Part shown: piece by piece, positions 38,995-51,302 of the stretch
Layout: each line of letters begins with the position of its first letter
How positions within the stretch are numbered: the first letter of the stretch is position 1
Assembly: GCF_029846175.1 (NCBI RefSeq)
Contig: NZ_JARWAC010000022.1
Location: 1 to 64,000 of the forward strand
Reading direction: 5' to 3'
Source of the DNA: Sphaerisporangium sp. TRM90804
Lineage (GTDB): Bacteria; Actinomycetota; Actinomycetes; Streptosporangiales; Streptosporangiaceae
Length of the DNA: 64,000 nt
Notes under the pieces: generated by a model
Told to the model about the DNA's origin: nothing
The model's input: the letters and a program-made list of their open reading frames with translations, nothing else
The model's database searches: none
Made by a program: the position numbers and the translations under genes

Positions 38995-40224
38995 TCAGGT
39001 GGCCGGTCGGGAGCCGAGCATGCCGTGCGGGTCGAGCACGAACTTGCAGGCCGCGCCGCGGTCGAAGTCGCGGTATCCCCGCACCGCGTCATCCAGCGGG
39101 ATCGGGACGGCGTTGACCGCCTTGGCGATCTGAACGCGGTCGTGCAGGATCGCCATCATCAGCCGCCGGTTGTACCGCATGACCGGGCACTGGCCGGTGA
39201 AGAGGGACAGCGACTTGGCCCAGCCGAGGCCGAACCGCAGCGACAGCGCCCCCACCTTGGCCGCCTCGTCGGGAGCCCCCGGATCCCCGGTGACGTACAG
39301 CCCCGGGATGCCGATCGCGCCGCCCGCCCTGGTGAGCTCCATCAGGGCGTTCAGCACCGTCGCGGGCGCCTCGATCTCGGCGTCCTCCCCGTGGCCGCGC
39401 GCCTCGAAGCCGACGGCGTCCACCGCGCAGTCGACCTCCGGGGTGCCCAGGATCTGCGCGATCTGGTCGGGCAGCGGGCCCTTGGAGACGTCGACGGTCT
39501 CGCAACCGAAGCTGCGCGCCTGCGCCAGCCGTTCGGTGTTCAGGTCGCCGACGATCACCACCGCGGCGCCCAGCAGCAGGGCGGACACGGCAGCCGCCAG
39601 CCCGACCGGCCCGGCGCCGGCGATGTAGACCGTGGAGCCCGTGCCCACTCCGGCGCGCACGCAACCGTGGTAACCCGTGGGGAAGATGTCGGTGAGCATG
39701 GCGAGGTCGAGGATCTTCTCCATCGCCCGATCCCTGTCGGGGAACACCAGCAGGTTCCAGTCGGCGTAGGGCACCAGCACGTACTCCGCCTGCCCGCCCA
39801 CCCATCCGCCCATGTCGACGTACCCGTAGGCCGCCCCGGGCCGGTCGGGGTTCACGTTCTCGCAGACGTCCGTCTTGCGCTCCTTGCAGTTCCGGCACCG
39901 CCCGCAGGCGATGTTGAACGGAACTGAGACGAGGTCGCCCACCTTGACGAACTCGACGTCCCTGCCGGTCTCGACCACCTCCCCGGTGATCTCGTGCCCG
40001 AGGATCAGCCCCGGCGGGGCGGTCGTCCGCCCCCTGACCATGTGCTGGTCGCTGCCGCAGATGTTGGTCGCGATCGCCTTGACGATGGCTCCGTGCGGAA
40101 TCCGGCGCCCGACATTGGCCGGATGCACCCCCGGGCCGTCCTTGAGCACGAACTCGGGGTAGTCGATCTCCTCGACCCCGACCTCCCCGGGCCCGAGATA
40201 CGCGACTCCCTTGTTGCCGGGCAT
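38995..40224 (-). CDS. fdhA: Glutathione-independent formaldehyde dehydrogenase (zinc, NAD)
   Basis: 409 aa MDR-family dehydrogenase. It has the catalytic-zinc Cys in NICGSDQHMVRGR, GHEITGEVV, the structural-zinc loop CGRCRNCKERKTDVC, and the cofactor motif AGAGPVGLAAA. The N-terminal GNKGVAYLGPGEV and the C-terminal DFDRGAACKFVLDPHG tail are typical of Pseudomonas-type FdhA, which binds NAD tightly and dismutates aldehydes. It detoxifies formaldehyde without glutathione or mycothiol. Single gene. Confidence 0.9.
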   Translation of the reverse strand: MPGNKGVAYLGPGEVGVEEIDYPEFVLKDGPGVHPANVGRRIPHGAIVKAIATNICGSDQHMVRGRTTAPPGLILGHEITGEVVETGRDVEFVKVGDLVSVPFNIACGRCRNCKERKTDVCENVNPDRPGAAYGYVDMGGWVGGQAEYVLVPYADWNLLVFPDRDRAMEKILDLAMLTDIFPTGYHGCVRAGVGTGSTVYIAGAGPVGLAAAVSALLLGAAVVIVGDLNTERLAQARSFGCETVDVSKGPLPDQIAQILGTPEVDCAVDAVGFEARGHGEDAEIEAPATVLNALMELTRAGGAIGIPGLYVTGDPGAPDEAAKVGALSLRFGLGWAKSLSLFTGQCPVMRYNRRLMMAILHDRVQIAKAVNAVPIPLDDAVRGYRDFDRGAACKFVLDPHGMLGSRPAT

Positions 40225-40319
40225 GTGATCATCCCCCGTCTCCGGCGAAAGTGCGATGTACCTCTGTTGAGATGTATCCCCACTTCAAGGGCAACGTCCC
40301 GTGGGTCGGCGCGGCGGCG

Positions 40320-40733
40320 TCACCCGTTCCGGCGGTCCTGGAACGCGGCCGAGCCGTCGCCGGTCTGAATGATCCCCTCGTTCACCCCGGTGACCACACC
40401 GCGGTCGCCCACCGTCACCCGGACGCCGGCCTCGCCGAGCATCCGCCGCAGGTCCTGCGCGAGTTCGGCGTCCGACGCCAGGAGCTTGCGGAGCTGGACG
40501 CGCACCACCGCCCGCAGGTCCTCGTCGTCGTGGTTCCCGTCGAGCTCCCGCACCGCCTCCTCCAGCTCGGGCGCGTCGCCCCGCCGGAAGAGGCGCCGCA
40601 GGATGCGGTGGCCCAGGTTCACGGTGGCCCCGGCGGCGTCGTCCTGGGCTCTGGTGAACACCGCCAGGCCGTACGCGTTCACCGCCTCGGCGACGTACGC
40701 GGTCGCCGCCGCCGCCAGTTCCGTCATCGTCAT
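40320..40733 (-). CDS. Small NLR-associated protein with C-terminal Gly-rich motif
   Basis: 137 aa, 7 bases after the NB-ARC gene and last in the operon. Residues 1-105 are mostly helical and charged (YVAEAVNAYGLAVFTRAQ, LGHRILRRLFRR, LRAVVRVQLRKLL). The C-terminal part ends in VNEGIIQTGDGSAAF. The NB-ARC protein has a similar motif, GAAMTGDYASAAIF, at its N-terminus. Shared short motifs of this kind connect bacterial NLRs to their effectors by beta-arch (amyloid-like) templating, so this may be an effector or adaptor. No catalytic motif is seen. Confidence 0.55.
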   Translation of the reverse strand: MTMTELAAAATAYVAEAVNAYGLAVFTRAQDDAAGATVNLGHRILRRLFRRGDAPELEEAVRELDGNHDDEDLRAVVRVQLRKLLASDAELAQDLRRMLGEAGVRVTVGDRGVVTGVNEGIIQTGDGSAAFQDRRNG

Positions 40734-40739
40734 CGCCGG

Positions 40740-42593
40740 TCAGCCTCCAGATGATGGTCGGTGGAGCCCTGCGCCCTCATCGGGCGGGCCGTGCGGCTCC
40801 AGGTCGCCGGCCAGGCGGCGAAGCCGCTCGACCAGGTCGTCGCCGGAGTGGCCCTCGGCGATGGCCAGGGCCTTGGCGACCGCCTCCCTCGCCTCCCGGA
40901 CGCGTCCGGAGTCGGCGTACAGCAGGGCGAGGTTGCTCAGCCAGGGCACGAGCTCGGCACCGCCGGGCCCGTAGGCCTTCTCGGTGAGCCGGTACGCCCT
41001 CCTGACCAGCGGCAGCGCCTCCTCGGTGCGGCCGAGGTTGGAGTAGGTGGCCGCGACGTTGCCCAGCGCCTGGGCCACCCGCGGGTCGTCGGGCCCGTGC
41101 GCGGCCTCGGCGAACTCCATGGCGCGTCTGGCCAGCGGTAGCGCCACATCGGGCCGGCCCAGCTCCTGGTAGAGCGAGGAGAGGTTGGCGACCCGCCGGT
41201 AGTCGGGGCCAAGGGCGGACTCCGTGATCGACAGAACTGCCGCGGAGTACCGCCCCACCAGGGCGCCGTCGTCCGCCGACGGAAGGGAGAAGTCCGACGG
41301 CTTCGGGTGACGGCCCTGGGACCACCACTCGGGACGATCGGGGTGGTGGCGGACGATGTTCTCCAGGTGGCCGGCAAGGCTGCGCACCACAGCGCGCTTC
41401 AGCGCTTGCCCGGGCTCGGGCTCCACGTCGGTCAGCCACCGAAGGGCCAGGTCACGACCGGCGGGGTGCTCACTCCCGGCCGTCTGCCGCTCCCGCAGCA
41501 CCGCCTGGAGCAGCGGCGACATGCCGATGGTGTCGCGCGTCCTGTCGATCATGTTGAAGTCGGCGAGCGTCCCGATCGCCTCGTCGACGTCCTCCGGGTT
41601 CTCCTTCGGCGCCACCAGCACCCTCGGGATGTCGTGGGGCGCGTACCAGGCCATCACGTCCAGCAGCCGGGTGGCGGAGTACCCGGCGCCGGAACGGCGG
41701 TCGCGCGCGCCGATGTCGGTCAGGGTGATGTCCCAGAGCCGTGACACCGTCCGCTCGGCGCCCTCGGCCGCCTGTTCCGACCCGTACACACGCTGGGGGT
41801 TGTCCCGCAGAACCCGCAGGAACCGCTCCAGGCTCATGTTCGTGCGCCGGACATAGGCGATGGCGTGCCGCAGCCCCAGCGGGTGGCAGCCCAGCTCGCG
41901 GGCCATCCGCCGGGCGCCGGCGCGGTCGCCCGCCCCCGTCTCCCCCATGATCAGCTCGGTCGCGGCCTCCAGGGAGAGGGCGCGCAGGTGGATCGGCGTG
42001 ACAAGCCGATCCCACGAGCTGAGGCGGCTGGTCACCAGCACGTGGCCGGTACGCAGCTGGCCGAGCAGGCTCCGTACGTGCCCGATCTCCCTGACGTCGT
42101 CCAGCACCAGCAGCCAGCTCGAACAGCTCTGCAGCAGGTGCAGCGTCCACTCGGCGGCGTCGGACGGGTGCCGGATCCCCGGGCGTATCCGCGTCGCGAG
42201 CGCGGCCAGGCCGGTCTCGATGTTCCGCGGCGTGTCGGCGGCGACCCACCCCCTCAGCCAGTAGCGGCCGGGATGCCCGTCGGCGTAGTGCAGGGCCAGC
42301 TCGGTCTTGCCGACGCCGCCGAGCCCGTGGAGCGTCACCGCGACGTCGCCGGAGAGCGCCCTGTCGAGGGAGGCGAGGGCGTCCGCACGGCCGGGGAACG
42401 GGCGCATGGGTGGGCGGGGGAGCGTGGTGATGCCGCGCGGCATGGCGATGTCGCCGGGGAGCGGCGGCAGGGTCTCGTGGTTGAAGATCGCGGCGGAGGC
42501 GTAGTCGCCGGTCATGGCGGCGCCCCCGTGCAGCCTGCCGCTGAAGATGCCGCGGTCGCCCGGCGGCCGGCCGGCCTCCTGGTCGTGGTTCAC
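40740..42593 (-). CDS. NB-ARC/TPR (NLR-like STAND) protein
   Basis: 617 aa. Residues about 20-40 hold the motif GGAAMTGDYASAAIFNHET. The NB-ARC ATPase starts near 65 (PGRADALASLDRAL, Walker A HGLGGVGKTELAL at about 90-98, Walker B WLLVLDDV at 160-167, LVTSRLSSWD as sensor, GCHPLGLRHAIAYVRR as the GxP motif). Tetratricopeptide repeats fill about 455-600 (LSSLYQELGRPDVALPLARRA, YSNLGRTEEALPLVRRA). There is no effector enzyme domain. Such proteins sense a trigger, oligomerise and recruit an effector. It lies 46 bases after the second GTPase gene. Confidence 0.85.
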   Translation of the reverse strand: MNHDQEAGRPPGDRGIFSGRLHGGAAMTGDYASAAIFNHETLPPLPGDIAMPRGITTLPRPPMRPFPGRADALASLDRALSGDVAVTLHGLGGVGKTELALHYADGHPGRYWLRGWVAADTPRNIETGLAALATRIRPGIRHPSDAAEWTLHLLQSCSSWLLVLDDVREIGHVRSLLGQLRTGHVLVTSRLSSWDRLVTPIHLRALSLEAATELIMGETGAGDRAGARRMARELGCHPLGLRHAIAYVRRTNMSLERFLRVLRDNPQRVYGSEQAAEGAERTVSRLWDITLTDIGARDRRSGAGYSATRLLDVMAWYAPHDIPRVLVAPKENPEDVDEAIGTLADFNMIDRTRDTIGMSPLLQAVLRERQTAGSEHPAGRDLALRWLTDVEPEPGQALKRAVVRSLAGHLENIVRHHPDRPEWWSQGRHPKPSDFSLPSADDGALVGRYSAAVLSITESALGPDYRRVANLSSLYQELGRPDVALPLARRAMEFAEAAHGPDDPRVAQALGNVAATYSNLGRTEEALPLVRRAYRLTEKAYGPGGAELVPWLSNLALLYADSGRVREAREAVAKALAIAEGHSGDDLVERLRRLAGDLEPHGPPDEGAGLHRPSSGG

Positions 42594-42639
42594 CGGACGC
42601 CGCCGTGACCGCGCGGCCGTGGCGGGTTCACGGCGCTGC

Positions 42640-43569
42640 TCACCGCGTCGTCCCGTGGGGGGCGCGGACGGCCGCGCTCCACCAGCGGAGCAGGGTCTGC
42701 CGGAGTTCGGGGATGCCGGAGGCGGCGATGGTGTGCTCCGCGCCGCGGCTCAGGGCGCCGGCGTCGGCCGCGCCGCCGCCCATCGGGTGGGCCAGCGCGT
42801 CGAGCGTCGCGGCGTGGGCGTCGTCGCCGAGCAGGAGGGACGCGGCCAGCGCCCACCGCGCCGAGGTCTCGACGACCGGGGGGCGTCCGGCCGCGGGCAT
42901 GCGGGCGTGGACGTGGCGCCGCAGGCTCTCGCCGGCCAGGTCGCCGTCCTCCCCCTGGTCCACGCGGTTCACCGCGATCGTCACCCGGCCGGGGCCGACG
43001 CGGGCTGTCGCCTCCGCGGCCAGGCGCAGCACGCGGGCGTCCTCGACGGTGTCGAGGTGCGTGTAGTCGAGCACCACCAGGAAGGCGTCCGACGGCCCCG
43101 CCAGGATGCCCGGCGGGCCGTCGACCAGGACGAACCGCTCCGAGGCGGCCCATCCGACGGGCACCACCACGTGCGGCGGGCTGGGGTGCTCGCCGCGCCC
43201 GTCCGCGGAGGCCGTCGCTCCCAGGGCCCGCCGCAGGTCGGCGAGGACGGCGCGCACCCGGTCGGCTCCGGTGACCGGGGCGGCGCCCGCCGCCAGCGGA
43301 CCGGCCAGAAGCCGGCCCGCCGAGGCGGCGCGTGACGGCTCCGCCGTACCCGGCGACTCCCGCACCGCCGCCCGGGTGCCGTCGGACAGGTGCAGCGTGG
43401 GCTCGGCCACCGTCTCCCCGGCCGGGACGACGGCCACCTCGGTCAGCGGGGAGACGCCCTCCAGGGTGGAGACAGGCAGTACCGCCGCGCCGATCAGGGC
43501 GTTGACCAGCGTGGAGACGCCGGCCTTCGGCAGGCCGGCCACCGCCACCCGCAACGGCGGCGGGCTCAT
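42640..43569 (-). CDS. Degenerate dynamin-like GTPase, second copy
   Basis: 309 aa. It overlaps the upstream dynamin gene by ATGA. The G-domain resembles that of its neighbour (FLVVLDYTHLDTVEDARVL against VVIVLDYTRLNVMADEAIR), but P-loop GLPKAGVST lacks the Lys normally following the second Gly. G3 is DGPPG and G4 NRVD is kept. It ends shortly after the G-domain and lacks the stalk helices. It may be a regulatory pseudo-GTPase that pairs with the full-length protein, as in two-component bacterial dynamin pairs. Confidence 0.7.
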   Translation of the reverse strand: MSPPPLRVAVAGLPKAGVSTLVNALIGAAVLPVSTLEGVSPLTEVAVVPAGETVAEPTLHLSDGTRAAVRESPGTAEPSRAASAGRLLAGPLAAGAAPVTGADRVRAVLADLRRALGATASADGRGEHPSPPHVVVPVGWAASERFVLVDGPPGILAGPSDAFLVVLDYTHLDTVEDARVLRLAAEATARVGPGRVTIAVNRVDQGEDGDLAGESLRRHVHARMPAAGRPPVVETSARWALAASLLLGDDAHAATLDALAHPMGGGAADAGALSRGAEHTIAASGIPELRQTLLRWWSAAVRAPHGTTR

Positions 43570-45782
43570 GACGCCGCTCGCTCCTGCAGCTCGCGCAGCT
43601 CCGCCGAGGCGCTCCGGGTCGCCTCCACCAGCTCGGCGAGCTCCTCCAGCCGCACCCGGCGCCGCCGGTCGTCGGTCCGGAGATCGTCGCGCGCCGCGGC
43701 GAGGTCGTCACGGTACGCCTTGACCAGGCGGACGGCGTCGTCGTGGTAGCGGGAGACGTGCGCGGCGAGCTGGGGCGCGACGTGCTCCCGCACCTGGGCC
43801 GAAAGATCGTCGACGCGGGCGCCGAACGAGGCGGCCAGCGTGTGCCGGGTGTCGCCGAGCCCGGCCTTGTAGGAGACCGTCTGCCCGTAGACCGGGGTGG
43901 TCGGCGCGGCCTCGCCCTGCCACCAGCGGACGAACATCTCCCCGAGCGTCTCGTCGACCCTCTCGTGCCCAGCTACGTACGTCTTCGTCTTCCGGTCGGG
44001 ATCGGCCCCGCCTCCCTTCACCGCCTTCGCGGAGCTCGGCGTCAGCGAGACCGCCTCGGGCGCCGGGAGGCCGGCGGCCACACCCGCGCGGCGCATGATC
44101 GGGGCCACCGACTTCTCCGCCTGCGCCAGCAGCTCGCCACGCAGCAGGCCGAGGCGGCGGGCGACCTCGTTGCGGGCGTCGTAGAGGATGTAGTCGAGCT
44201 CCTCGGAGGCCTTGTTCCTCCGCTTCTTGATGTACTTCTTGGCCTCCTTGGCGGTGTCGAAGCGCTTGGCCCCCCGCACGCTGTCGATCACCACCTCACC
44301 GCGGCGGCGGGCGCCGTCGATCACTTCGGCCACGCTGTCCTGCGCGCGCTTGCGCACCTCGTTCTTGCCGGGCAGGCGCGAGGTCAGCCGGTCGAGCTCG
44401 GCCAGCTCGCCCGCGAGGTCGTCCATGCGGCGGGTGATCTCGGCCTGGTCGGCGTGCATCGCCGCGATGCGGTTGGAGGCCGCCGCCTCGATCTCGTCCA
44501 GCATCCCGATCGTGCGGCCCAGCACCGCGTCGACCAGGATCGGGACGGCCGTGCGCCGCAGGGTGTGCAGCACGCGGTCGCGGAAGACGGGAAGCCCGCT
44601 GTACCGCCACATCTCCTGCGCCGTGGCGTGCAGGGATGCCACCGTGGCCGTCTCCCGGTCGCGCTCCCAGCCGTAGCGCGAACGCAGGCGGAGCATGGCC
44701 TCGACGGCGGGGTCGGTGGCCGGGTCGAGCCCGTCGCCGGCATCGGTGACCCGGGCGAGCACCCGCGCCGCGGCCAGGCCGAACCGCGCGCGGGTCTCGA
44801 TGACCCGCTCACGAGCCTGGTCGCCGGAGAAGCCGAGCAGGCGGCCGACCAGGCGGACGACCTCCTCGGGGCCCGGGTCCTCCTCGGTGAGCCGTTCGTC
44901 GACCTTGTTGACGACGGCGAACAGCTTCTCGGTGCCGATGCGCGCCAGCACCGGGCGCACCAGCTCGCGGATCGCCTCGTCGGCCATGACGTTGAGCCGG
45001 GTGTAGTCGAGCACGATCACCACGACGTGCGCCTTGGCGAGCTGGTCGGCCACGATCTCGGTCAGCGGCACGCTCATCTGCGCGTCGTCCGGGCCGGGGG
45101 TGTCGACCAGCACCAGGGTTCCGGCGCCCGGCCCCGCGCCGGCGGGCGCGAACTCCGACGGGGTGTGCAGGGACGGCACGTCGGAGAGGGCGGAGACCAC
45201 GTCGACGTCGGGCAGGACCACCGACCCGACGCGAACCAGCTCGTTCAGCCGCATCAGCGTCCGCTGGATCTCCCTCTCGCCCGTGCATTCGAGGGGGAAC
45301 GGCACCCGGGGCCCGCTCACGATCAGATCGAGCAGGGGACCCATGTGGGGGAACAGGTCGAGGACGTCGTCGCGTTCGGCGTCTCCCAGGCGCGTGGCCA
45401 GCTCGCCGGTGAGCGTGTCGAACAGGGCCGCGTCGGAGGCGGCCAGCCTGAGCACGGGTTCGGCGACGTCGTCCAGGACGATCCTGGTGGGAAGGGTGGT
45501 CATGCCGGTCACCCGGGCGGGGAGCAGCGTGAGCCCCGTCATCGCGTTGATGATCGTGGACTTGCCCGCGCTCATCGGTGCGACGATCGGTATGCGCAGC
45601 TCCATCCGTTCGATCGCCTCGACGTCGTCGTGAACGGCGCTCATCGCGGCCTCGACGCCCCGGCCCGACCGGACGGCGTGCAGGTCCAGCTCCCCAGCCT
45701 GGGTGAGCAGCGCGTCCAGGTCGGTGAGGCGGTCGCGGACCTCTGCCTGGAGGAGGGTGACGGCGTCGTCCTCGTCGGCCAT
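43566..45782 (-). CDS. Dynamin-family (DLP) GTPase, first gene of the operon
   Basis: 738 aa from the ATG at 45782 (AGGAG 8 bases upstream). The frame is open further but without a site. The G1 motif is APMSAGKST (about 68-76, first Gly replaced by Ala as in dynamins), G2 is TTLPTR, G3 DTPGPD (227-231), G4 NKVDE (292-296). A long helical stalk follows (about 400-600) with a basic KKYIKKRRNKASEEL and a GAKRFDTAKEAKK segment. The last part is a coiled-coil (RRVRLEELAELVEATRS). Dynamin-like proteins bind and remodel membranes. In this operon it is paired with a short GTPase and an NLR. Confidence 0.85.
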   Translation of the reverse strand: MADEDDAVTLLQAEVRDRLTDLDALLTQAGELDLHAVRSGRGVEAAMSAVHDDVEAIERMELRIPIVAPMSAGKSTIINAMTGLTLLPARVTGMTTLPTRIVLDDVAEPVLRLAASDAALFDTLTGELATRLGDAERDDVLDLFPHMGPLLDLIVSGPRVPFPLECTGEREIQRTLMRLNELVRVGSVVLPDVDVVSALSDVPSLHTPSEFAPAGAGPGAGTLVLVDTPGPDDAQMSVPLTEIVADQLAKAHVVVIVLDYTRLNVMADEAIRELVRPVLARIGTEKLFAVVNKVDERLTEEDPGPEEVVRLVGRLLGFSGDQARERVIETRARFGLAAARVLARVTDAGDGLDPATDPAVEAMLRLRSRYGWERDRETATVASLHATAQEMWRYSGLPVFRDRVLHTLRRTAVPILVDAVLGRTIGMLDEIEAAASNRIAAMHADQAEITRRMDDLAGELAELDRLTSRLPGKNEVRKRAQDSVAEVIDGARRRGEVVIDSVRGAKRFDTAKEAKKYIKKRRNKASEELDYILYDARNEVARRLGLLRGELLAQAEKSVAPIMRRAGVAAGLPAPEAVSLTPSSAKAVKGGGADPDRKTKTYVAGHERVDETLGEMFVRWWQGEAAPTTPVYGQTVSYKAGLGDTRHTLAASFGARVDDLSAQVREHVAPQLAAHVSRYHDDAVRLVKAYRDDLAAARDDLRTDDRRRRVRLEELAELVEATRSASAELRELQERAAS

Positions 45783-46098
45783 GCGGTCATCTCCTGAGGC
45801 CGAGGGTAACCGAACGAATGCGGTGGTGAAGGCTGTCACCCGGCCGGCCGAAGCCGCCTCGGGGCTCCGCGTCAGGAGACGGGAGAACCTTGGCACACGA
45901 GTCGTCACCGCAACATCGTGGAAAGACGGGATTCACGTCACTTCGCGGCGATTCGCAGGGGAGGCGCTCCGCGGGCCCGCCGCGCGGACGCGTCACGCTC
46001 CCGGGGGGTGCGCGCGGCCCGTCTGGGTGCCGTCCGCGCCGGCCCGCGGGCATGGCTGACGCCGCACCGCAGGTCGGGCGGTGCGGCGTCGGGCGGGG
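45783..46098. promoter_or_regulatory. Upstream region of the dynamin/NLR operon
   Basis: 316 gene-free bases that should hold the promoter of the minus-strand operon starting at 45782. No clear -35/-10 pair was found. A perfect 13-bp hairpin (46058-46090) closes the preceding polyprenyl-synthase gene, so the operon is probably an independent unit. Confidence 0.4.
46058..46090 (-). terminator. Terminator of the polyprenyl synthase gene
   Basis: Perfect 13-bp stem GACGCCGCACCGC (46058-46070) and GCGGTGCGGCGTC (46078-46090), 7-base loop, 8 bases after the stop on the minus strand. Confidence 0.8.
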
Positions 46099-47127
46099 TC
46101 AGTGGTCGCGGTGGGTGATCAGGCGGGCGAGGGACTGGAGTTCGGCGGCGGGGCGTGGGGCGGGGGCGGCCGCGGTCAGATGGGCCTGGGCCTCGGCGAA
46201 GAGGTCGGCGGCCCTGGCCTGGGTCCAGGCGCGGCCGCCGGCCTGTTCGATGAGCTCGGCGGCGTATTCGAGGTCGGCTCCGGCGGGCTCGCGGCGGTAG
46301 AGCTCGGCGAGCCGTTCGCCCGCCGCCGTGCCGGAGGTCAGGGCGGCCACCACGGGCAGCGACTTCTTGCGGCTGCGGACGTCGGAGTAGACCGGCTTGC
46401 CGGTGACCTCGGGGTCGCCCCAGATGCCCAGCAGGTCGTCCACGAGCTGGAAGGCCAGGCCGAGGCGGTCGCCGAAGCGGCGCAGGTGCTCGACGCGCTC
46501 GGCGTCGCCGCCGCCGAGGAGCGCGCCGAGCGCGCACGCGGAGCCGAGCAGGGCGCCCGTCTTGCCCTCGGCCATGCTGACGCACTCGGCGAGCGTGACG
46601 TCGTCGCGGCTCTCGAAGGCGGTGTCGGAGCTCTGGCCCTCGACGAGGTCGAGCACGGCGGCGCCGAGCACCCGCGCGGCGCCGTCGGTGGCCTGGTGCC
46701 CGCTGCTCGCGAGCACGTCGAACGCCAGAGTGAGCAGGGCGTCCCCGGCGAGGATCGCCTTGCTGACGCCGAACACGCTCCAGACGGTGGGGCGGTGGCG
46801 GCGGGTGACGTCGCCGTCCATCACGTCGTCGTGCAGGAGCGAGAAGTTGTGCACCAGCTCCACGGCCACCGCGGCCGGCATGGCGGTCTCCGGCCGGCCG
46901 CCGAGCGCTTCGGCGGCCAGCAGCAGCAGGGCGGGGCGGATGGCCTTCCCGCCGTCGCCCTCGGCGGGCTCGCCGTGCTGGTCGAGCCAGCCGAAGTGGT
47001 AACCCGCGACGCGCCGCATCGACGGCGGCAGGGTCTCCACCGCGGTGCGCAGGGCGGGGCCCACGGTGTCCCGGCTCCAGTGCAGCACCTCGCGCACGGG
47101 CCGTCCGGTGGTCATGACCTCGACCAT
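46099..47127 (-). CDS. Polyprenyl synthase, probable encapsulin cargo
   Basis: 342 aa isoprenyl diphosphate synthase with both Asp-rich metal motifs: LLHDDVMDGD (first) and QLVDDLLGIWGD (second), plus GGKAIRPALLLLAAEALGG. It condenses isopentenyl diphosphate with an allylic diphosphate in the cytosol. Polyprenyl transferases are a known cargo class of family 2B encapsulins, and the gene follows the shell gene on the same strand. The start at 47127 is preferred for the VEVMTTGR N-terminus, but the frame is open to 47214 and the extra 29 residues (KSGRGFLPAYPRLPTS...) could be a disordered cargo tail. Confidence 0.8.
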   Translation of the reverse strand: MVEVMTTGRPVREVLHWSRDTVGPALRTAVETLPPSMRRVAGYHFGWLDQHGEPAEGDGGKAIRPALLLLAAEALGGRPETAMPAAVAVELVHNFSLLHDDVMDGDVTRRHRPTVWSVFGVSKAILAGDALLTLAFDVLASSGHQATDGAARVLGAAVLDLVEGQSSDTAFESRDDVTLAECVSMAEGKTGALLGSACALGALLGGGDAERVEHLRRFGDRLGLAFQLVDDLLGIWGDPEVTGKPVYSDVRSRKKSLPVVAALTSGTAAGERLAELYRREPAGADLEYAAELIEQAGGRAWTQARAADLFAEAQAHLTAAAPAPRPAAELQSLARLITHRDH

Positions 47128-47216
47128 ATGCCTGACCCCTTCCTCAGAGCTTGTCTCGACGGATGTGGGAAGGCGCGGGTACGCCGGGAGAAAGCCTCTT
47201 CCAGACTTCATCACAA

Positions 47217-47247
47217 CCGGCCGCGCGGATCGCCGCCGCGCGGCCGG
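47217..47247 (-). promoter_or_regulatory. Hairpin between encapsulin and polyprenyl synthase genes
   Basis: Perfect 12-bp inverted repeat CCGGCCGCGCGG (47217-47228) and CCGCGCGGCCGG (47236-47247), 7-base loop, in the 208-base spacer. It could be a terminator or an attenuator that sets shell-to-cargo ratio. Confidence 0.5.
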
Positions 47248-47335
47248 GAATTCGGGCCGTCCGCCGGAAAATCACGGCCGCGCCCGCCCGGCGGGGCTCC
47301 GGGGACACCGGAGCCGGCTCGCCGGGAGGGGAGGG

Positions 47336-48748
47336 TCAGTGCCCGATCTCGACGTGCTCCAGCACGCCCAGCGCGTCGGGGACCAGGATCGCCGCGGAGT
47401 AGTAGGCGCTCACGAGGTAGGAGATGATCGCCTGATCGTCGATGCCCATGAACCGCACCGACAGGCTCGGCTCCACCTCGTCGGGCAGGCCTGTCTGGTG
47501 CAGGCCGATCACGCCCTGGTCGTCCTCGCCGGTGCGCAGGACCAGGATGGAACTGGTGCGGGTCTTGGTGATCGGGATCTTGTTGCACGGCAGCAGCGGA
47601 ACCCCGCGCCACGCGGGCACGGCATGCCCGTTCAGCACGATGTTGTCGGGATAGATGCCGCGCCGGCTGCACTCGCGGCCGAAGGCGGCGATGGTCTGCG
47701 GATGCGCCAGGAAGAAGTGCGACCGGCGGCGGCGGCACAGCAGCTCGTCGAGGTCGTCGGGGGTGGGCGGGCCGCTGCGGGTGGCGATGCGCTGCTTGAG
47801 GTCGGCGTTGTGCAGGAGCCCGAACTCGGCGTTGTTGACCAGCTCGTGCTCCTGGCGCTCGCGCAGCGCCTCGATGGTGAGCCGCAGCTGCTGGTGGGTC
47901 TGGTTCATCGGCTGGTTGTAGAGGTCGGCGACGCGGGTGTGGATGCGCAGGACCGTCTGGGCGACGCTCAGCTCGTACTCGCGGGGCGTGGTCTCGTAGT
48001 CGACGAACGTGCTGGTGAGGGTGGGTTCTCCCTGGTGGCCCGACAGGATGTCGATGCTCGCCTCGCCGTGTTTGTTCTGCGGCGGCCGGTGGTTGGTCTG
48101 CTGGGCCTCGATGTGGCCGCGCAGCGAGATCGACTGGGCGAGCAGCTCCTGGAACGCCTGGCGCGACAGGCTGAGCGTCGTGGTGGGGGTGACCGCCTTG
48201 ATGGTGTGCTCCCACGTCGTCTCCACGACGCCGTTGAGCGTGGTCTCGCCGTAGTAGTCGCCGTCGGCGAGCACGCCGAGGATGGTCTGGTCGCCGTACT
48301 CGCCGGTGCCTATCTTGTTGACCTTGCCGTGCGCGATCAGGACGACGCGGTCGGCGGGCCGGCCGGCCTCGACGATGACCTCGCCGGCCTCGTGCTCCTG
48401 CTGGGTGAAGCGGTTGGCGAGCGACTCCAGGACGGCGTCGTCGTCGAAGCCGCGCAGGGGCGGGAGCTCGCGCAGCTCGGGCGGTACGACGCGGACGTCG
48501 GCGCCCTGGCTGGTGAAGGTGAGGCGGCCGTCGCCGATCGCGTAGCTCAGGCGCCGGTTGACCCGGTAGGCGCCGCCGGGGACGTGCACCCAGGGCAGCA
48601 TGCGCAGCAGCCACCGGGAGGAGATGTTCTGCATCTGCGGCTGCGACTTGGTCGTCGTCGCCAGGTTGCGCGCCGCCGTGGGAGCGAGGCTCCGCTGAGA
48701 GTGCTGCCCGTTCTCGACGATCGGGCCCGCCTCGATTGTCTCTGTCAC
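47336..48748 (-). CDS. Family 2B encapsulin shell protein with cyclic-nucleotide-binding domain
   Basis: 470 aa from the GTG at 48748, a length usual for the group. An N-terminal HK97-type arm ([32 protein letters not shown]) is followed by an inserted cNMP-binding-like domain at about 93-208 ([29 protein letters not shown]). The HK97 capsid core comes next ([79 protein letters not shown]). Subunits self-assemble into a protein nanocompartment. The cNMP-like domain is displayed outside in related shells. The next gene encodes the likely cargo. Confidence 0.88.
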
Positions 48749-49313
48749 GACCCACACCACCAATCTTTTTATGTGAACGCGAAATAGGGGTTCTCGGTAA
48801 AGGGGATGCCGCGGTCGGACGCGGAACACGAAGCTGTTCGCCGGGGGGCGGCGGGGACGGGGACGGCTGCTCGGGGGAGGTGTCGCGCCCGTCGTGTGAC
48901 GGGAGAATAACTCACTGTAGTGGAGTTATTCCGGCGTCGACGGACGACAGCAATTATGCGGGGAACGTCTTCCGCGTGTCAATTGGAGTTTCCGTGTCTT
49001 GTCGGCATCGGAAATAACGAATTTCTCTCGGGAACGACGGCGGGCGCTGCATTTTTCGGTGTTCTCCATTGCTGGTGGTAATTGCGATGCTTGACCCGTT
49101 TTTTGAGGTTGATGTACGGACTCGCGGGAGTCGGGCCCGGGAGCCCGCCCGAAGGCGCGCCGGGGCCCTCGGAGGGCGAAGGCGTAAACTCGCAGATGAC
49201 GGCCCAGGGATCGTCCGGCCGGAGGCGCCAGTCGCGCCGGAGGTACCCGGCGCCGACGGGGAACGGCGCCCTCCCGGGACGGTCCGCCTCCGAACGCGAT
49301 GGGGGGCCCGCGA
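48749..49313. promoter_or_regulatory. Divergent intergenic region with AT-rich inverted repeat
   Basis: A 565-base gene-free region between the encapsulin gene and a divergent gene. AATAACTC at 48906-48913 and GAGTTATT at 48923-48930 form a perfect 8-bp inverted repeat with 9-base spacer, the most AT-rich symmetrical element nearby and a likely operator. The part 48950-49130 is also AT-rich. No other element was recognised. Confidence 0.4.
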
Positions 49314-51302
49314 ATGTCCCACAGCCTTTTCCGAGATCGCGCGGACGCCGGCCGGGCTCTCGGCCGTCTGCTCCACCGCTACGGGCGCCGTGACGACGTG
49401 GTGGTGCTGGGGCTGCCCCGCGGCGGCGTCCCGGTGGCCCACGAGGTCGCCCGCGCGCTCCGCGCCCCGCTCGACGTGCTCGTCGTCCGCGAGCTGGGCG
49501 TGCCCGGCCAGGAGGACCTCGCCATGGGCGCGGTCGCCGGGAAGGGCGCGGTCGTGCTCAACGAGGACGTGATCCGGGGGCTGTCGATCCCGCCGGAGGC
49601 GGTGGAGCACGTCGCCGAGCGGGAGGGCCGCGAGATCCCGCGCTGGGAGCGTCGCTACCGGCGCGGCCGCGGGCCGTACCCGGTGGCGGGCAAGGTCGCC
49701 GTCGTCGTCGACGACGGCCTCGCGGCGGGCGCGTGCATGCGGGCCGCGGTCAAGGCGGTGCGCATGCTGCGCCCCGCGCGTGTCGTGATCGCCGTGCCGA
49801 TCGCCGCCGAGTGCACCTGCCAGGAGCTCGCGGCCGGCGCCGACGAGGTCGTCTGCGCCACCGCCCCCACGCCGTACTCGGCCGCCGACCCCGAGACCTG
49901 GGGCGACGACGAGGTCACCCTCGCCGACGTGCTCGACCTCCTGCGCCGGGCCGGCCCGTGGCCGTGCGCGCCGACCGGCGGGCGGCCGTCCGGCGACGTC
50001 GCGGCCGTCGCCGCCGAGGCCCGGGTGGCCAGGGAGGCCGAGGAGGGCGCCCCGGGCAGGGAGGCCCTGTTCGAGCTGGTGGGCGACGCACAAATGGTCG
50101 TGATCGGTGGGTCCTCCCACGGCACGCACGAGTTCCACGCCGCGCGCGCCCGCATGACCAGGGCGCTCATCGAGGAGCGGGGCTTCAACGCCGTCGCGGC
50201 GCAGGCCGGCTGGCCGGACGCCTACCGGGTCAACCGGTACGTCCACGCCCACGGCGCGGACGCCGGCGCCGAGCAGGCCCTGCGCGGCTTCCAAGGGTTC
50301 CCCTCGTGGACGTGGCGCAACACGGTCGTGCTCGACTTCGTCGAGTGGCTGCGCGGCCACAACGCCCGTCTTTCCGGCGTCTCCCCGGCCGGGGTCGGCT
50401 TCTACGGCCTGGACGTGTACGGCGTCCAGCGGGCCGCGCACGAGGTGGTCGCCTGCCTGGAACGCGCCGACCCGGCCGCCGCCGCCCGGGCACGCCGGCG
50501 GTTCGCCCGCTTCGACCGCATGGACTCCGGGGCGGGCCCGGCGTACGACTTCGCGGCGGCCTGCGGCGCGGGCGAGCCGTGCGAGGACGACGTCGTCGGC
50601 CGGCTCGCGAGCCTGAGGCGGCACGGCATGGAGTCCGCCCGCGAGGAAGGGCTGCTGGAGGGGGACGAGCTGTTCCACGCCGAGCTGAACGCCGGCACGG
50701 CGCGGTCGGCGGAGGAGTACTACCGCGCGGCGCTCGGCGGCGGCATCGGGGCGTGGAACCTGCGCGAGCGCCACATGGCCGGCACGCTCGACGCACTGGC
50801 GCGGCACCTCGGCAGGCACGGCGACCCGGCGAAGATCGTGGTCTGGGGCACGAGCACCCACCTGGGGGACTCCCGTGCGACCGAGGCGGGGTGCCGCGGC
50901 GAGACCAGCCTCGGCCGCCTCGCACGCGAGCGGCACCCCGGCGCCTGCCGTCTCATCGGCCTGACCACCTACGCCGGCACCGTGACCGCCGCCGACGAGT
51001 GGGACGCCCCGCCGGGGACACAAGCTCTCGAACCCGCCGTGCCCGGCAGCGTCGAGGAGCTGTTCCACGAGGTGGGGGAGAAGGAGTTCCTGCTCGCCTT
51101 CGACACGGCGCCCCGGTCGGCCGACGTGCTGCGCTCGACCTGGCTGGAGCGGATGACCGGCGCCGTCCGCGTCCCCCGCGAGGGCCGGGGCCCGTACTTC
51201 CGGGCCCGCGTGCGCGACCAGTTCGACGCGGTCGTGCACATCGACGAGACCGCGGCGGTGGAGCCGCTGCCGCCCGCGCGCGGTTCCACCGGCCCGCGCT
51301 GA
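49314..51302 (+). CDS. Phosphoribosyltransferase-erythromycin esterase fusion
   Basis: 662 aa. Residues about 1-215 are a phosphoribosyltransferase-like domain (PRGGVPVAHEVARAL, PRPP loop VVVDDGLAAGACM at about 130-142). Residues about 250-650 are erythromycin-esterase-like (GGSSHGTHEFHAAR, WGTSTHLGDSR, LTTYAGTV). The usual GEATHG/GEASHG motif is GGSSHG, so the conserved catalytic Glu is missing. The architecture and length match Mycobacterium Rv2030c, a dormancy (DosR) regulon gene. Substrate unknown. The ATG at 49314 follows a G-rich stretch. Confidence 0.8.
   Translation: MSHSLFRDRADAGRALGRLLHRYGRRDDVVVLGLPRGGVPVAHEVARALRAPLDVLVVRELGVPGQEDLAMGAVAGKGAVVLNEDVIRGLSIPPEAVEHVAEREGREIPRWERRYRRGRGPYPVAGKVAVVVDDGLAAGACMRAAVKAVRMLRPARVVIAVPIAAECTCQELAAGADEVVCATAPTPYSAADPETWGDDEVTLADVLDLLRRAGPWPCAPTGGRPSGDVAAVAAEARVAREAEEGAPGREALFELVGDAQMVVIGGSSHGTHEFHAARARMTRALIEERGFNAVAAQAGWPDAYRVNRYVHAHGADAGAEQALRGFQGFPSWTWRNTVVLDFVEWLRGHNARLSGVSPAGVGFYGLDVYGVQRAAHEVVACLERADPAAAARARRRFARFDRMDSGAGPAYDFAAACGAGEPCEDDVVGRLASLRRHGMESAREEGLLEGDELFHAELNAGTARSAEEYYRAALGGGIGAWNLRERHMAGTLDALARHLGRHGDPAKIVVWGTSTHLGDSRATEAGCRGETSLGRLARERHPGACRLIGLTTYAGTVTAADEWDAPPGTQALEPAVPGSVEELFHEVGEKEFLLAFDTAPRSADVLRSTWLERMTGAVRVPREGRGPYFRARVRDQFDAVVHIDETAAVEPLPPARGSTGPR

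What the first reader, a model, noticed from the sequence alone, without database searches (positions are those of the whole stretch)
40320..45782. Four-gene operon joining two dynamin-like GTPases, an NLR-type sensor and a small partner
Seen: all four genes are on the minus strand with an ATGA overlap (43566/43569), a 46-base gap and a 7-base gap, behind their own promoter region and after a terminator. Established: bacterial dynamins act in membrane repair and defence, and NB-ARC/TPR proteins act as trigger-sensing NLRs. Inference: the NLR senses infection or damage and the dynamin pair remodels or breaks the membrane, giving a defence or stress system not described in this combination to my knowledge.
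Basis: partly seen in the sequence, partly recalled or inferred. Interest (0 to 1): 0.85.

Follow-up and report, generated by a model that had tools for sequence, protein, structure and literature searches.

The report
Dynamin switch wired to NLR–amyloid killer
A four-gene cassette in an actinobacterium puts a dynamin-like GTPase and a degenerate partner next to an immune-type NLR protein and a small protein that share a short amyloid-type motif, and looks like an undescribed union of two bacterial self-destruct or defence modules.

Summary
The four genes are real and form one tight minus-strand cassette. Gene 1 is a CrfC/RdcA(YjdA)-type dynamin. Gene 2 is a stalk-less G domain without the P-loop lysine, probably a pseudo-GTPase. 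Gene 3 is an NB-ARC-like/TPR protein with a short repeat array. Gene 4 is a small BELL-like protein. Gene 1 is absent from the 10 other genomes of the genus; in six with both flanks readable the slot holds other genes or nothing, so the four genes probably arrived together. I found this order nowhere else. But relatives of gene 1 are often linked to possible killer proteins: RdcB-like plus patatin (27 of 80 loci), fused TIR (2), caspase plus NLR (1). The two intact actinobacterial relatives have a second GTPase, then RdcB-like plus patatin where the window has NLR plus BELL. Best reading: a GTPase switch with an exchangeable killing arm, here amyloid NLR-BELL; gene 4, not the dynamin, attacks the membrane. 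Function is untested.

The parts
43566..45782 (-). Gene 1 (DynA): CrfC/RdcA-type dynamin-like GTPase, 738 aa, with G1 APMSAGKS, G3 DTPGP, G4 NKVD and a long C-terminal half
   Evidence: GTPase residues invariant in an alignment of 43 sequences including it; motifs listed; starred clade (100/99) with the three actinobacterial relatives
42640..43569 (-). Gene 2: stalk-less dynamin-type G domain, 309 aa, predicted pseudo-GTPase (P-loop Lys to Val, G3 DTPG to DGPPG, G4 NRVD)
   Evidence: Position equals that of the second GTPases of L062 and L073, which keep APMKAGKS and DTPGP; sequence alone does not prove orthology (12.5 and 24.2 bits, against 31.9 to gene 1)
40740..42593 (-). Gene 3 (NLR-type): NB-ARC-like ATPase with Walker A GLGGVGKT and short TPR array, 617 aa
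   Evidence: TPR_10 stretches 3 here against 13 and 7 in related NLRs L161 and L173
42492..42560 (-). N-terminal BASS-type motif of gene 3 (residues 12-34)
   Evidence: Smith-Waterman 45 with gene 4 C-terminus; 6 of 20000 and 12 of 20000 shuffles as high; not found by the family motif HMM
40320..40733 (-). Gene 4: small BELL-like protein, 137 aa, with a moderately hydrophobic N-terminal stretch (residues 8-26)
   Evidence: matches at E up to 0.01 in 59 of 249 genomes of the order, own genome included
40341..40415 (-). C-terminal BASS-type motif of gene 4 (residues 107-131)
   Evidence: HMM of 12 C-termini of related small proteins (window left out) hits residues 107-131 at 24.7 bits
46058..46090 (-). 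13-bp hairpin just after the upstream polyprenyl synthase gene, probable terminator before the cassette
   Evidence: -35.8 kcal/mol, z -4.31, 0 of 200 shuffles as stable
40248..46087 (.). Segment without counterpart in same-genus relatives: DNA homology stops at about 40224-40247 and resumes at about 46087-46099

Best explanation
The cassette is a horizontally acquired regulated-cell-death or anti-phage module made of two known halves. Input half: an RdcA/CrfC-type dynamin (gene 1) with a degenerate G-domain partner (gene 2) acts as a GTP-dependent oligomeric switch that responds to infection or to a fall in GTP. Output half: on activation the switch engages the NLR (gene 3), which oligomerises; its N-terminal BASS-type motif then seeds amyloid assembly of the C-terminal motif of gene 4, whose helical domain goes into the membrane and stops or kills the cell. 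Shown: gene identities, loss of the P-loop Lys in gene 2, motif similarity of genes 3 and 4, presence together in one variable slot, repeated linkage of the dynamin family to effector-type proteins. Inferred: operon transcription, contact between dynamin and NLR, amyloid formation, membrane killing, the trigger.
For: (1) Motif similarity of genes 3 and 4, and the same pairing in 5 of 20 fetched loci of related small proteins with an adjacent NLR (L161, L169, L173, L175, L178; 0 to 2 of 2000 shuffles as high). BASS motifs at the NLR N-terminus and the BELL C-terminus of neighbouring genes are the published pattern (PMC7889193, PMC9815663, passages). (2) Gene 1 clusters at 100/99 with the three actinobacterial relatives among the 80 loci kept; the two intact ones read DynA, second GTPase, RdcB-like, patatin, so the effector position differs within that clade. 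(3) Across the 80 loci: RdcB-like plus patatin 27 (one of them, L070, as a single ORF), fused TIR 2 (L098 strong, TIR_2 8e-18 and Thoeris ThsB 4e-63; L084 weak and split by a frameshift), caspase plus NB-ARC NLR 1. In L088 the caspase C-terminus and NLR N-terminus share a domain (SW 131, 0 of 5000 shuffles): an independent dynamin, effector, NLR order. (4) RdcA is soluble and activates its target enzyme by contact that depends on GTP hydrolysis (PMC6510439, passages). (5) The short TPR array fits an NLR driven by operon partners rather than by a large sensor array. (6) The four genes alone fill a variable slot between conserved flanks.
Against: The four-gene order was seen once only. Gene 1: 1 of 11 genomes of the genus (E up to 1e-5), 1 of 345 of the class (E up to 1e-10). 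None of the 80 dynamin loci has a protein matching gene 3 or gene 4 by phmmer at 1e-5; the L088 NLR was recognised by Pfam only. 0 of 20 small-protein loci hold a dynamin hit. Of those 20, 5 have an adjacent NLR with a matching motif, one is a fusion (L170), 14 show neither; in L164, L177 and L180 an adjacent NLR lacks a significant match. The NLR-side motif is degenerate and the family HMM misses it. Gene 2 is no closer to the second GTPases of L062 and L073 than to gene 1, so its equivalence rests on position. 27 of 80 dynamin loci show no recognised effector and 20 are enterobacterial dynamin-RdcB loci without patatin, so this is not purely a defence family. PADLOC gives only weak LeoA/LeoBC hits for gene 1 and none for genes 2-4. 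L088 has no second GTPase and an extra 171-aa protein. Gene 2 could be a decaying gene. No functional data.
Confidence: 0.42

Rival explanations
1. Chance neighbours: a BASS-type NLR-BELL pair and a dynamin pair landed side by side in a variable slot and work independently.
For: Only one instance of the order; 0 of 20 small-protein loci have a dynamin hit; 0 of 80 dynamin loci have a gene-3-like or gene-4-like protein by phmmer; gene 1 not found in other genomes of genus and class searched.
Against: The slot holds these four genes and no other, same strand, 46-base gap, while relatives have MFS and other genes or nothing there; the place after DynA and second GTPase is followed by RdcB-like and patatin in the two intact actinobacterial relatives; a dynamin, caspase, NLR order exists in L088.
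Confidence: 0.32
2. One reading: the NLR senses infection, the two dynamins remodel or break the membrane, gene 4 is accessory.
For: B. subtilis DynA is reported to act in membrane surveillance and phage resistance (PMC8844932, start of abstract in the listing only); NLRs are the usual sensors (general knowledge).
Against: Gene 2 has no stalk and a broken P-loop; RdcA is soluble; in relatives separate enzymes sit beside or on the dynamin; gene 4 has the executioner-type layout with a motif like the NLR's; the NLR has a short repeat array.
Confidence: 0.12
3. A non-immune signalling operon: the RdcA-like switch reads GTP level and the NLR-BELL pair controls development or programmed lysis.
For: E. 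coli RdcA/RdcB acts on a diguanylate cyclase and biofilm matrix (PMC6510439, passages); BASS pairs are reported from multicellular Actinomycetes, Cyanobacteria and Archaea (PMC9815663, passage), and their outcome in bacteria is called unexplored (PMC7889193, passage).
Against: Presence in one of 11 genomes of the genus and gain in a variable slot is unlike a developmental regulator; three dynamin-RdcB-patatin loci that I opened lie on plasmids.
Confidence: 0.14

Closest known systems
BASS/BELL NLR amyloid signalosomes of multicellular bacteria (Dyrka et al. 2020, not held; seen through passages of PMC7889193, PMC9815663, PMC8086366)
   Same: Adjacent NLR and small effector; motif at NLR N-terminus and effector C-terminus; actinobacterial host
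   Different: Described as two-gene clusters; here a dynamin and a probable pseudo-GTPase share the cassette, the NLR has a short TPR array and its motif is degenerate
E. coli RdcA-RdcB (YjdA/CrfC-YjcZ)
   Same: Gene 1 is a relative (21-22% identity to four enterobacterial members)
   Different: No RdcB-like gene in the cassette; output would be NLR-BELL, not a diguanylate cyclase; second G-domain protein present
DynA, second GTPase, RdcB-like, patatin loci of Streptacidiphilus jeojiense (L062) and Dactylosporangium sucinum (L073)
   Same: Dynamins of the same clade followed by a second dynamin-type GTPase
   Different: Patatin instead of NLR-BELL; second GTPase longer and with intact P-loop, and not clearly orthologous to gene 2 by sequence
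Bacteroidota locus L088 (dynamin, 171-aa protein, caspase, NB-ARC NLR)
   Same: CrfC-like dynamin next to an effector and an NLR that share a domain
   Different: Longer shared domain instead of a short motif; caspase effector; no second GTPase; NLR not similar to gene 3 by phmmer
Eleos (LeoA/LeoBC) dynamin defence
   Same: Dynamin-type proteins in paired genes (recalled)
   Different: Only weak profile matches (gene 1: LeoA 1.9e-9, LeoBC 5.9e-7; genes 2-4 none)
DO-GTPase conflict systems (Kaur et al. 2020, PMC7159879, passages)
   Same: GTPases, in 38% of systems two paralogous copies, with variable effectors
   Different: Another TRAFAC family, 60% with zinc ribbons, accompanied by GAP1; no such domain among Pfam hits of the four proteins

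Membership tests
BASS NLR-BELL signalosome | NLR gene next to a small effector gene | tested here: met
   Genes 3 and 4, 6-base gap
BASS NLR-BELL signalosome | Matching short motif at NLR N-terminus and effector C-terminus | tested here: met
   SW 45; 6 and 12 of 20000 shuffles as high. Against: the family HMM finds the effector-side motif but not the NLR-side one
BASS NLR-BELL signalosome | Effector has a BELL domain (helical bundle with hydrophobic helix) | tested here: inconclusive
   The small-protein family lies beside NLRs with matching motifs in 5 of 20 loci and gene 4 has a hydrophobic stretch, but no BELL model was at hand and structure prediction was off
BASS NLR-BELL signalosome | Amyloid formation and templating between the motifs | not testable with these tools
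   Needs peptides or a GFP-foci assay
RdcA/CrfC dynamin family | Dynamin-type G domain with CrfC-like sequence | tested here: met
   CrfC model 5.8e-34, below the equivalog cut-off; tblastn to a crfC gene in an E. coli record 4e-18; alignment and tree
RdcA-RdcB system | RdcB/YjcZ partner gene | tested here: not met
   Four RdcB queries against the four window proteins: best 6.1 bits. A relative of RdcA, not an RdcAB system
Eleos | LeoA and LeoBC genes side by side | tested here: not met
   PADLOC: gene 1 weak to both, genes 2-4 none
DO-GTPase system | DO-GTPase with GAP1 | tested here: not met
   No such domain among Pfam hits of the four proteins; definition from PMC7159879 passages. No dedicated DO-GTPase or GAP1 profile was run
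FxSxx-COOH system | FxsA peptide and FxsB radical SAM genes beside FxsT (recalled) | tested here: not met
   Gene 3 scores 213 bits against a cut-off of 300; the other three genes are not these; no search for FxsA or FxsB further out was made
Membrane-remodelling dynamins | Membrane binding and GTP-driven assembly on membrane | not testable with these tools
   Highest 19-residue hydropathy in gene 1 is 1.5, inside the G domain; structure prediction off

The most novel reading that the evidence does not exclude
RdcA/CrfC-type dynamins are the core switch of a widespread, so far unnamed class of prokaryotic immune systems with exchangeable killing arms (patatin phospholipase, fused Thoeris-like TIR, caspase plus NLR, and here NLR plus amyloid BELL), and the window is a case in which a dynamin switch feeds an amyloid, necrosome-like arm with a pseudo-GTPase partner as regulator.
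Probability: 0.4. Interest if true: 0.85.

Novelty: new variant of a known kind. Interest (0 to 1): 0.62.

Why it matters
The outcome and biological role of bacterial amyloid NLR signalling are called unexplored and a blind spot in a review (PMC7889193, passages), and how dynamins serve bacterial immunity is unsettled (my knowledge). If the dynamin is the upstream switch, both questions become testable in one 5.5-kb cassette. The neighbourhood survey also suggests that E. coli RdcA/CrfC, studied for biofilm and nucleoid roles, belongs to a family with other members tied to possible cell-death effectors.

Tried and rejected
Rejected: FxSxx-COOH system (gene 3 below cut-off); Eleos and DO-GTPase membership; a BASS-like motif in genes 1 or 2 (best window scores 29 and 31 against 45); remains of the cassette beside the broken DynA of Streptomyces cellostaticus L045 (only dynamin-type matches); RdcB or patatin hidden in the window proteins. 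No relative of gene 1 was found in phage records (E up to 1e-5) or viral contigs. Promoter and terminator consensus scan: uninformative. A conserved four-gene order: not found.

Literature: eight searches listed no paper that, by title and abstract start, joins CrfC/RdcA-type dynamins with patatin, TIR, NLR or BELL; 'dynamin' has 0 occurrences in PMC7159879 and PMC8195603 by the listing. The library lacks most subscription papers; Dyrka et al. 2020 is not held.

Limits: the 80 loci are the best of 348 relatives and lean to cyanobacteria and enterobacteria; the other 268 were not seen. Neighbour labels rest on phmmer with a few queries and on reading ORFs (the listing was cut in the middle, so some neighbours of the 27 unlabelled loci were not read). 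The 20 small-protein loci were picked by hand among stronger matches, from 59 genomes. In L180 a motif match is to an NLR fragment that is not adjacent; not counted. Branches of the window protein, L073, L088, L096 and L098 are long.
Full report
OBSERVATION. A 13-bp hairpin follows the upstream gene; the consensus scan saw no promoter. The genome belongs to the class of actinobacteria that holds the Streptacidiphilus genome of L062.

GENE IDENTITIES. Gene 1 is a dynamin of the CrfC/RdcA (YjdA) kind: CrfC model 5.8e-34, Dynamin_N 2.3e-9; with the family profile the best solved structure by sequence is the bacterial dynamin-like protein 2j68 (5.6e-13). It keeps the GTPase residues that are invariant in the 43-row alignment. 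Gene 2 aligns with the second GTPases of L062 and L073 (34 and 38% in a five-row alignment), but G1 is GLPKAGVS instead of APMKAGKS, G3 is DGPPG instead of DTPGP, and there is no region after the G domain: a predicted pseudo-GTPase. By phmmer it is no closer to those two (12.5 and 24.2 bits) than to gene 1 (31.9 bits), so equivalence rests on position. Gene 3 is an NB-ARC-like ATPase of the FxsT-like type with three TPR_10 stretches, against 13 and 7 in two related NLRs. Gene 4 has no credible Pfam, NCBIfam or PADLOC family but has matches in 59 of 249 genomes of the order at E up to 0.01, its own included; some of the weakest may be chance.

THE MOTIF. Gene 4 ends in GDRGVVTGVNEGIIQTGDGSAA and gene 3 begins, after eleven residues, with GDRGIFSGRLHGGAAMTGDYASA. 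The local alignment scores 45; 6 of 20000 shuffles of the NLR end and 12 of 20000 of the small-protein end do as well. An HMM made from 12 C-termini of related small proteins, window excluded, finds gene 4 at 24.7 bits but not gene 3. In 20 fetched loci of related small proteins (hand-picked among 59 genomes), 8 have an NLR ORF detectable with gene 3 and one more (L170) has the small domain and NLR in one frame; in 5 of the 20 an adjacent NLR carries a matching N-terminal motif (0 to 2 of 2000 shuffles as high), near-identical in L173 and L175; in three others (L164, L177, L180) the adjacent NLR shows no significant match; no dynamin hit is in any of the 20. This is the pattern described as BASS motifs in BELL-NLR neighbours (PMC7889193, PMC9815663, PMC8086366; passages seen).

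DISTRIBUTION. Gene 1 was found in 1 of 11 genomes of the genus (E up to 1e-5) and 1 of 345 of the class (E up to 1e-10); a profile of four rows found 3 of 396 of the phylum (E up to 1e-8), two of them short partial matches. Gene 2: 25 of 150 genomes of the family match at E up to 0.001, but only its own genome at full length. A scan of one genome for each of 84,980 species gave 348 relatives of gene 1, of which the best 80 were kept; three are actinobacterial: L045 (dynamin ORF cut short at 429 aa), L062 and L073. A profile search of 297 genomes of one family in the same class found one, by its coordinates the L062 genome again.

NEIGHBOURS OF GENE 1 RELATIVES. Among the 80 loci: RdcB-like plus patatin in 27 (L062 and L073 with a second GTPase; L070 as a single RdcB-patatin ORF); RdcB-like without a patatin found in 23 (20 enterobacterial loci; L074, where the RdcB-like piece lies upstream; L077 and L078, cut by contig ends); a TIR domain fused to the dynamin in 2 (L098, TIR_2 8e-18 and Thoeris ThsB 4e-63; L084, TIR_2 0.0042 in one frame and the rest in another); caspase plus NB-ARC NLR in 1 (L088); none recognised in 27. 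No protein in the 80 loci matches gene 3 or gene 4 by phmmer at 1e-5; the L088 NLR was found by Pfam (NB-ARC 4e-15). In L088 the caspase C-terminus and NLR N-terminus share a domain (SW 131, 0 of 5000 shuffles). In plasmid records 36 match gene 1; the three that I opened (two Nostoc, one E. coli) read dynamin, YjcZ/RdcB, patatin. The E. coli locus is in 6 of 5426 E. coli genomes, all on plasmids, 5 with at least 80% of it, two of these records being of one strain.

TREE. With 44 rows, the window protein joins L073, L062 and L045 at 100/99; effector labels are clustered but patatin needs four changes. Several branches are long, so finer placement is unsure.

ACQUISITION. In other genomes of the genus, cellulase, alcohol dehydrogenase, polyprenyl synthase, encapsulin and phosphoribosyltransferase-like genes flank the same place. 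Both flanks are readable in six: L205, L207, L208 and L212 hold an MFS transporter gene there, with other genes in some; L211 and L206 hold nothing (L208 and L206 lack the dehydrogenase, L207 has a remnant). L209, L210 and L213 show one flank or neither fully. DNA homology stops at about 40224-40247 and resumes at about 46087-46099. The window strain thus holds just these four genes in a variable slot, which argues for gain as a unit.

MECHANISM. RdcA of E. coli is soluble, binds RdcB, and activates the cyclase DgcE by direct contact that needs GTP hydrolysis; the authors suggest GTP as an inhibitor and its fall as the cue (PMC6510439, passages). Together with effector-type proteins beside or on relatives, this favours gene 1 as an input switch, gene 2 as a regulatory pseudo-GTPase, the NLR as relay and gene 4 as executioner. 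Contact between gene 1 or 2 and gene 3, amyloid formation, and killing are inferences.

KNOWN AND NEW. The NLR-BELL pair is a known kind and the RdcA family is known; their union, and the repeated link of this dynamin family to patatin, TIR and caspase-NLR, was not found in eight literature searches of an open-licence library that lacks most subscription papers. I rate it a new variant of a known kind.

Noticed in passing
window 46099-48829 (-): Family 2B encapsulin shell gene (NF041163, 782 bits, cut-off 400) followed by its polyprenyl transferase cargo gene (NF041169, 498 bits, cut-off 450), next to the cassette.
   Followed up: partly
G108, G825, G827, G828, G829: Five of 11 genomes of the genus carry two encapsulin matches close together, whereas the window genome has one; possible two-component shells.
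   Followed up: no
window 49299-51302 (+): 667-aa protein with a phosphoribosyltransferase-like N-terminal part and an erythromycin-esterase-like C-terminal part (weak hits).
   Followed up: no
L205 8477-12049: About 3.5 kb in the same variable slot of a same-genus genome in which my ORF filter kept almost nothing; content not identified.
   Followed up: no
L098 7869-10820; L084 7905-10863: CrfC-like dynamins of Myxococcota with a C-terminal TIR domain, in L098 close to Thoeris ThsB; in L084 split by a frameshift.
   Followed up: partly
L088 7869-14762: Bacteroidota order dynamin, 171-aa protein, caspase, NB-ARC NLR and a further protein, with a domain shared by caspase and NLR.
   Followed up: partly
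L043 136-4729: Cyanobacterial dynamin preceded by a 129-aa protein with an IGNV-type repeated N-terminal stretch and a 505-aa protein without Pfam family; may be another motif-linked system.
   Followed up: no
L170 4519-7236: Small BELL-like domain, motif and NLR apparently in one ORF.
   Followed up: no
L062 13911-16283: A 790-aa ORF that looks like a further dynamin-type GTPase, by eye, right after the patatin gene of the Streptacidiphilus locus.
   Followed up: no
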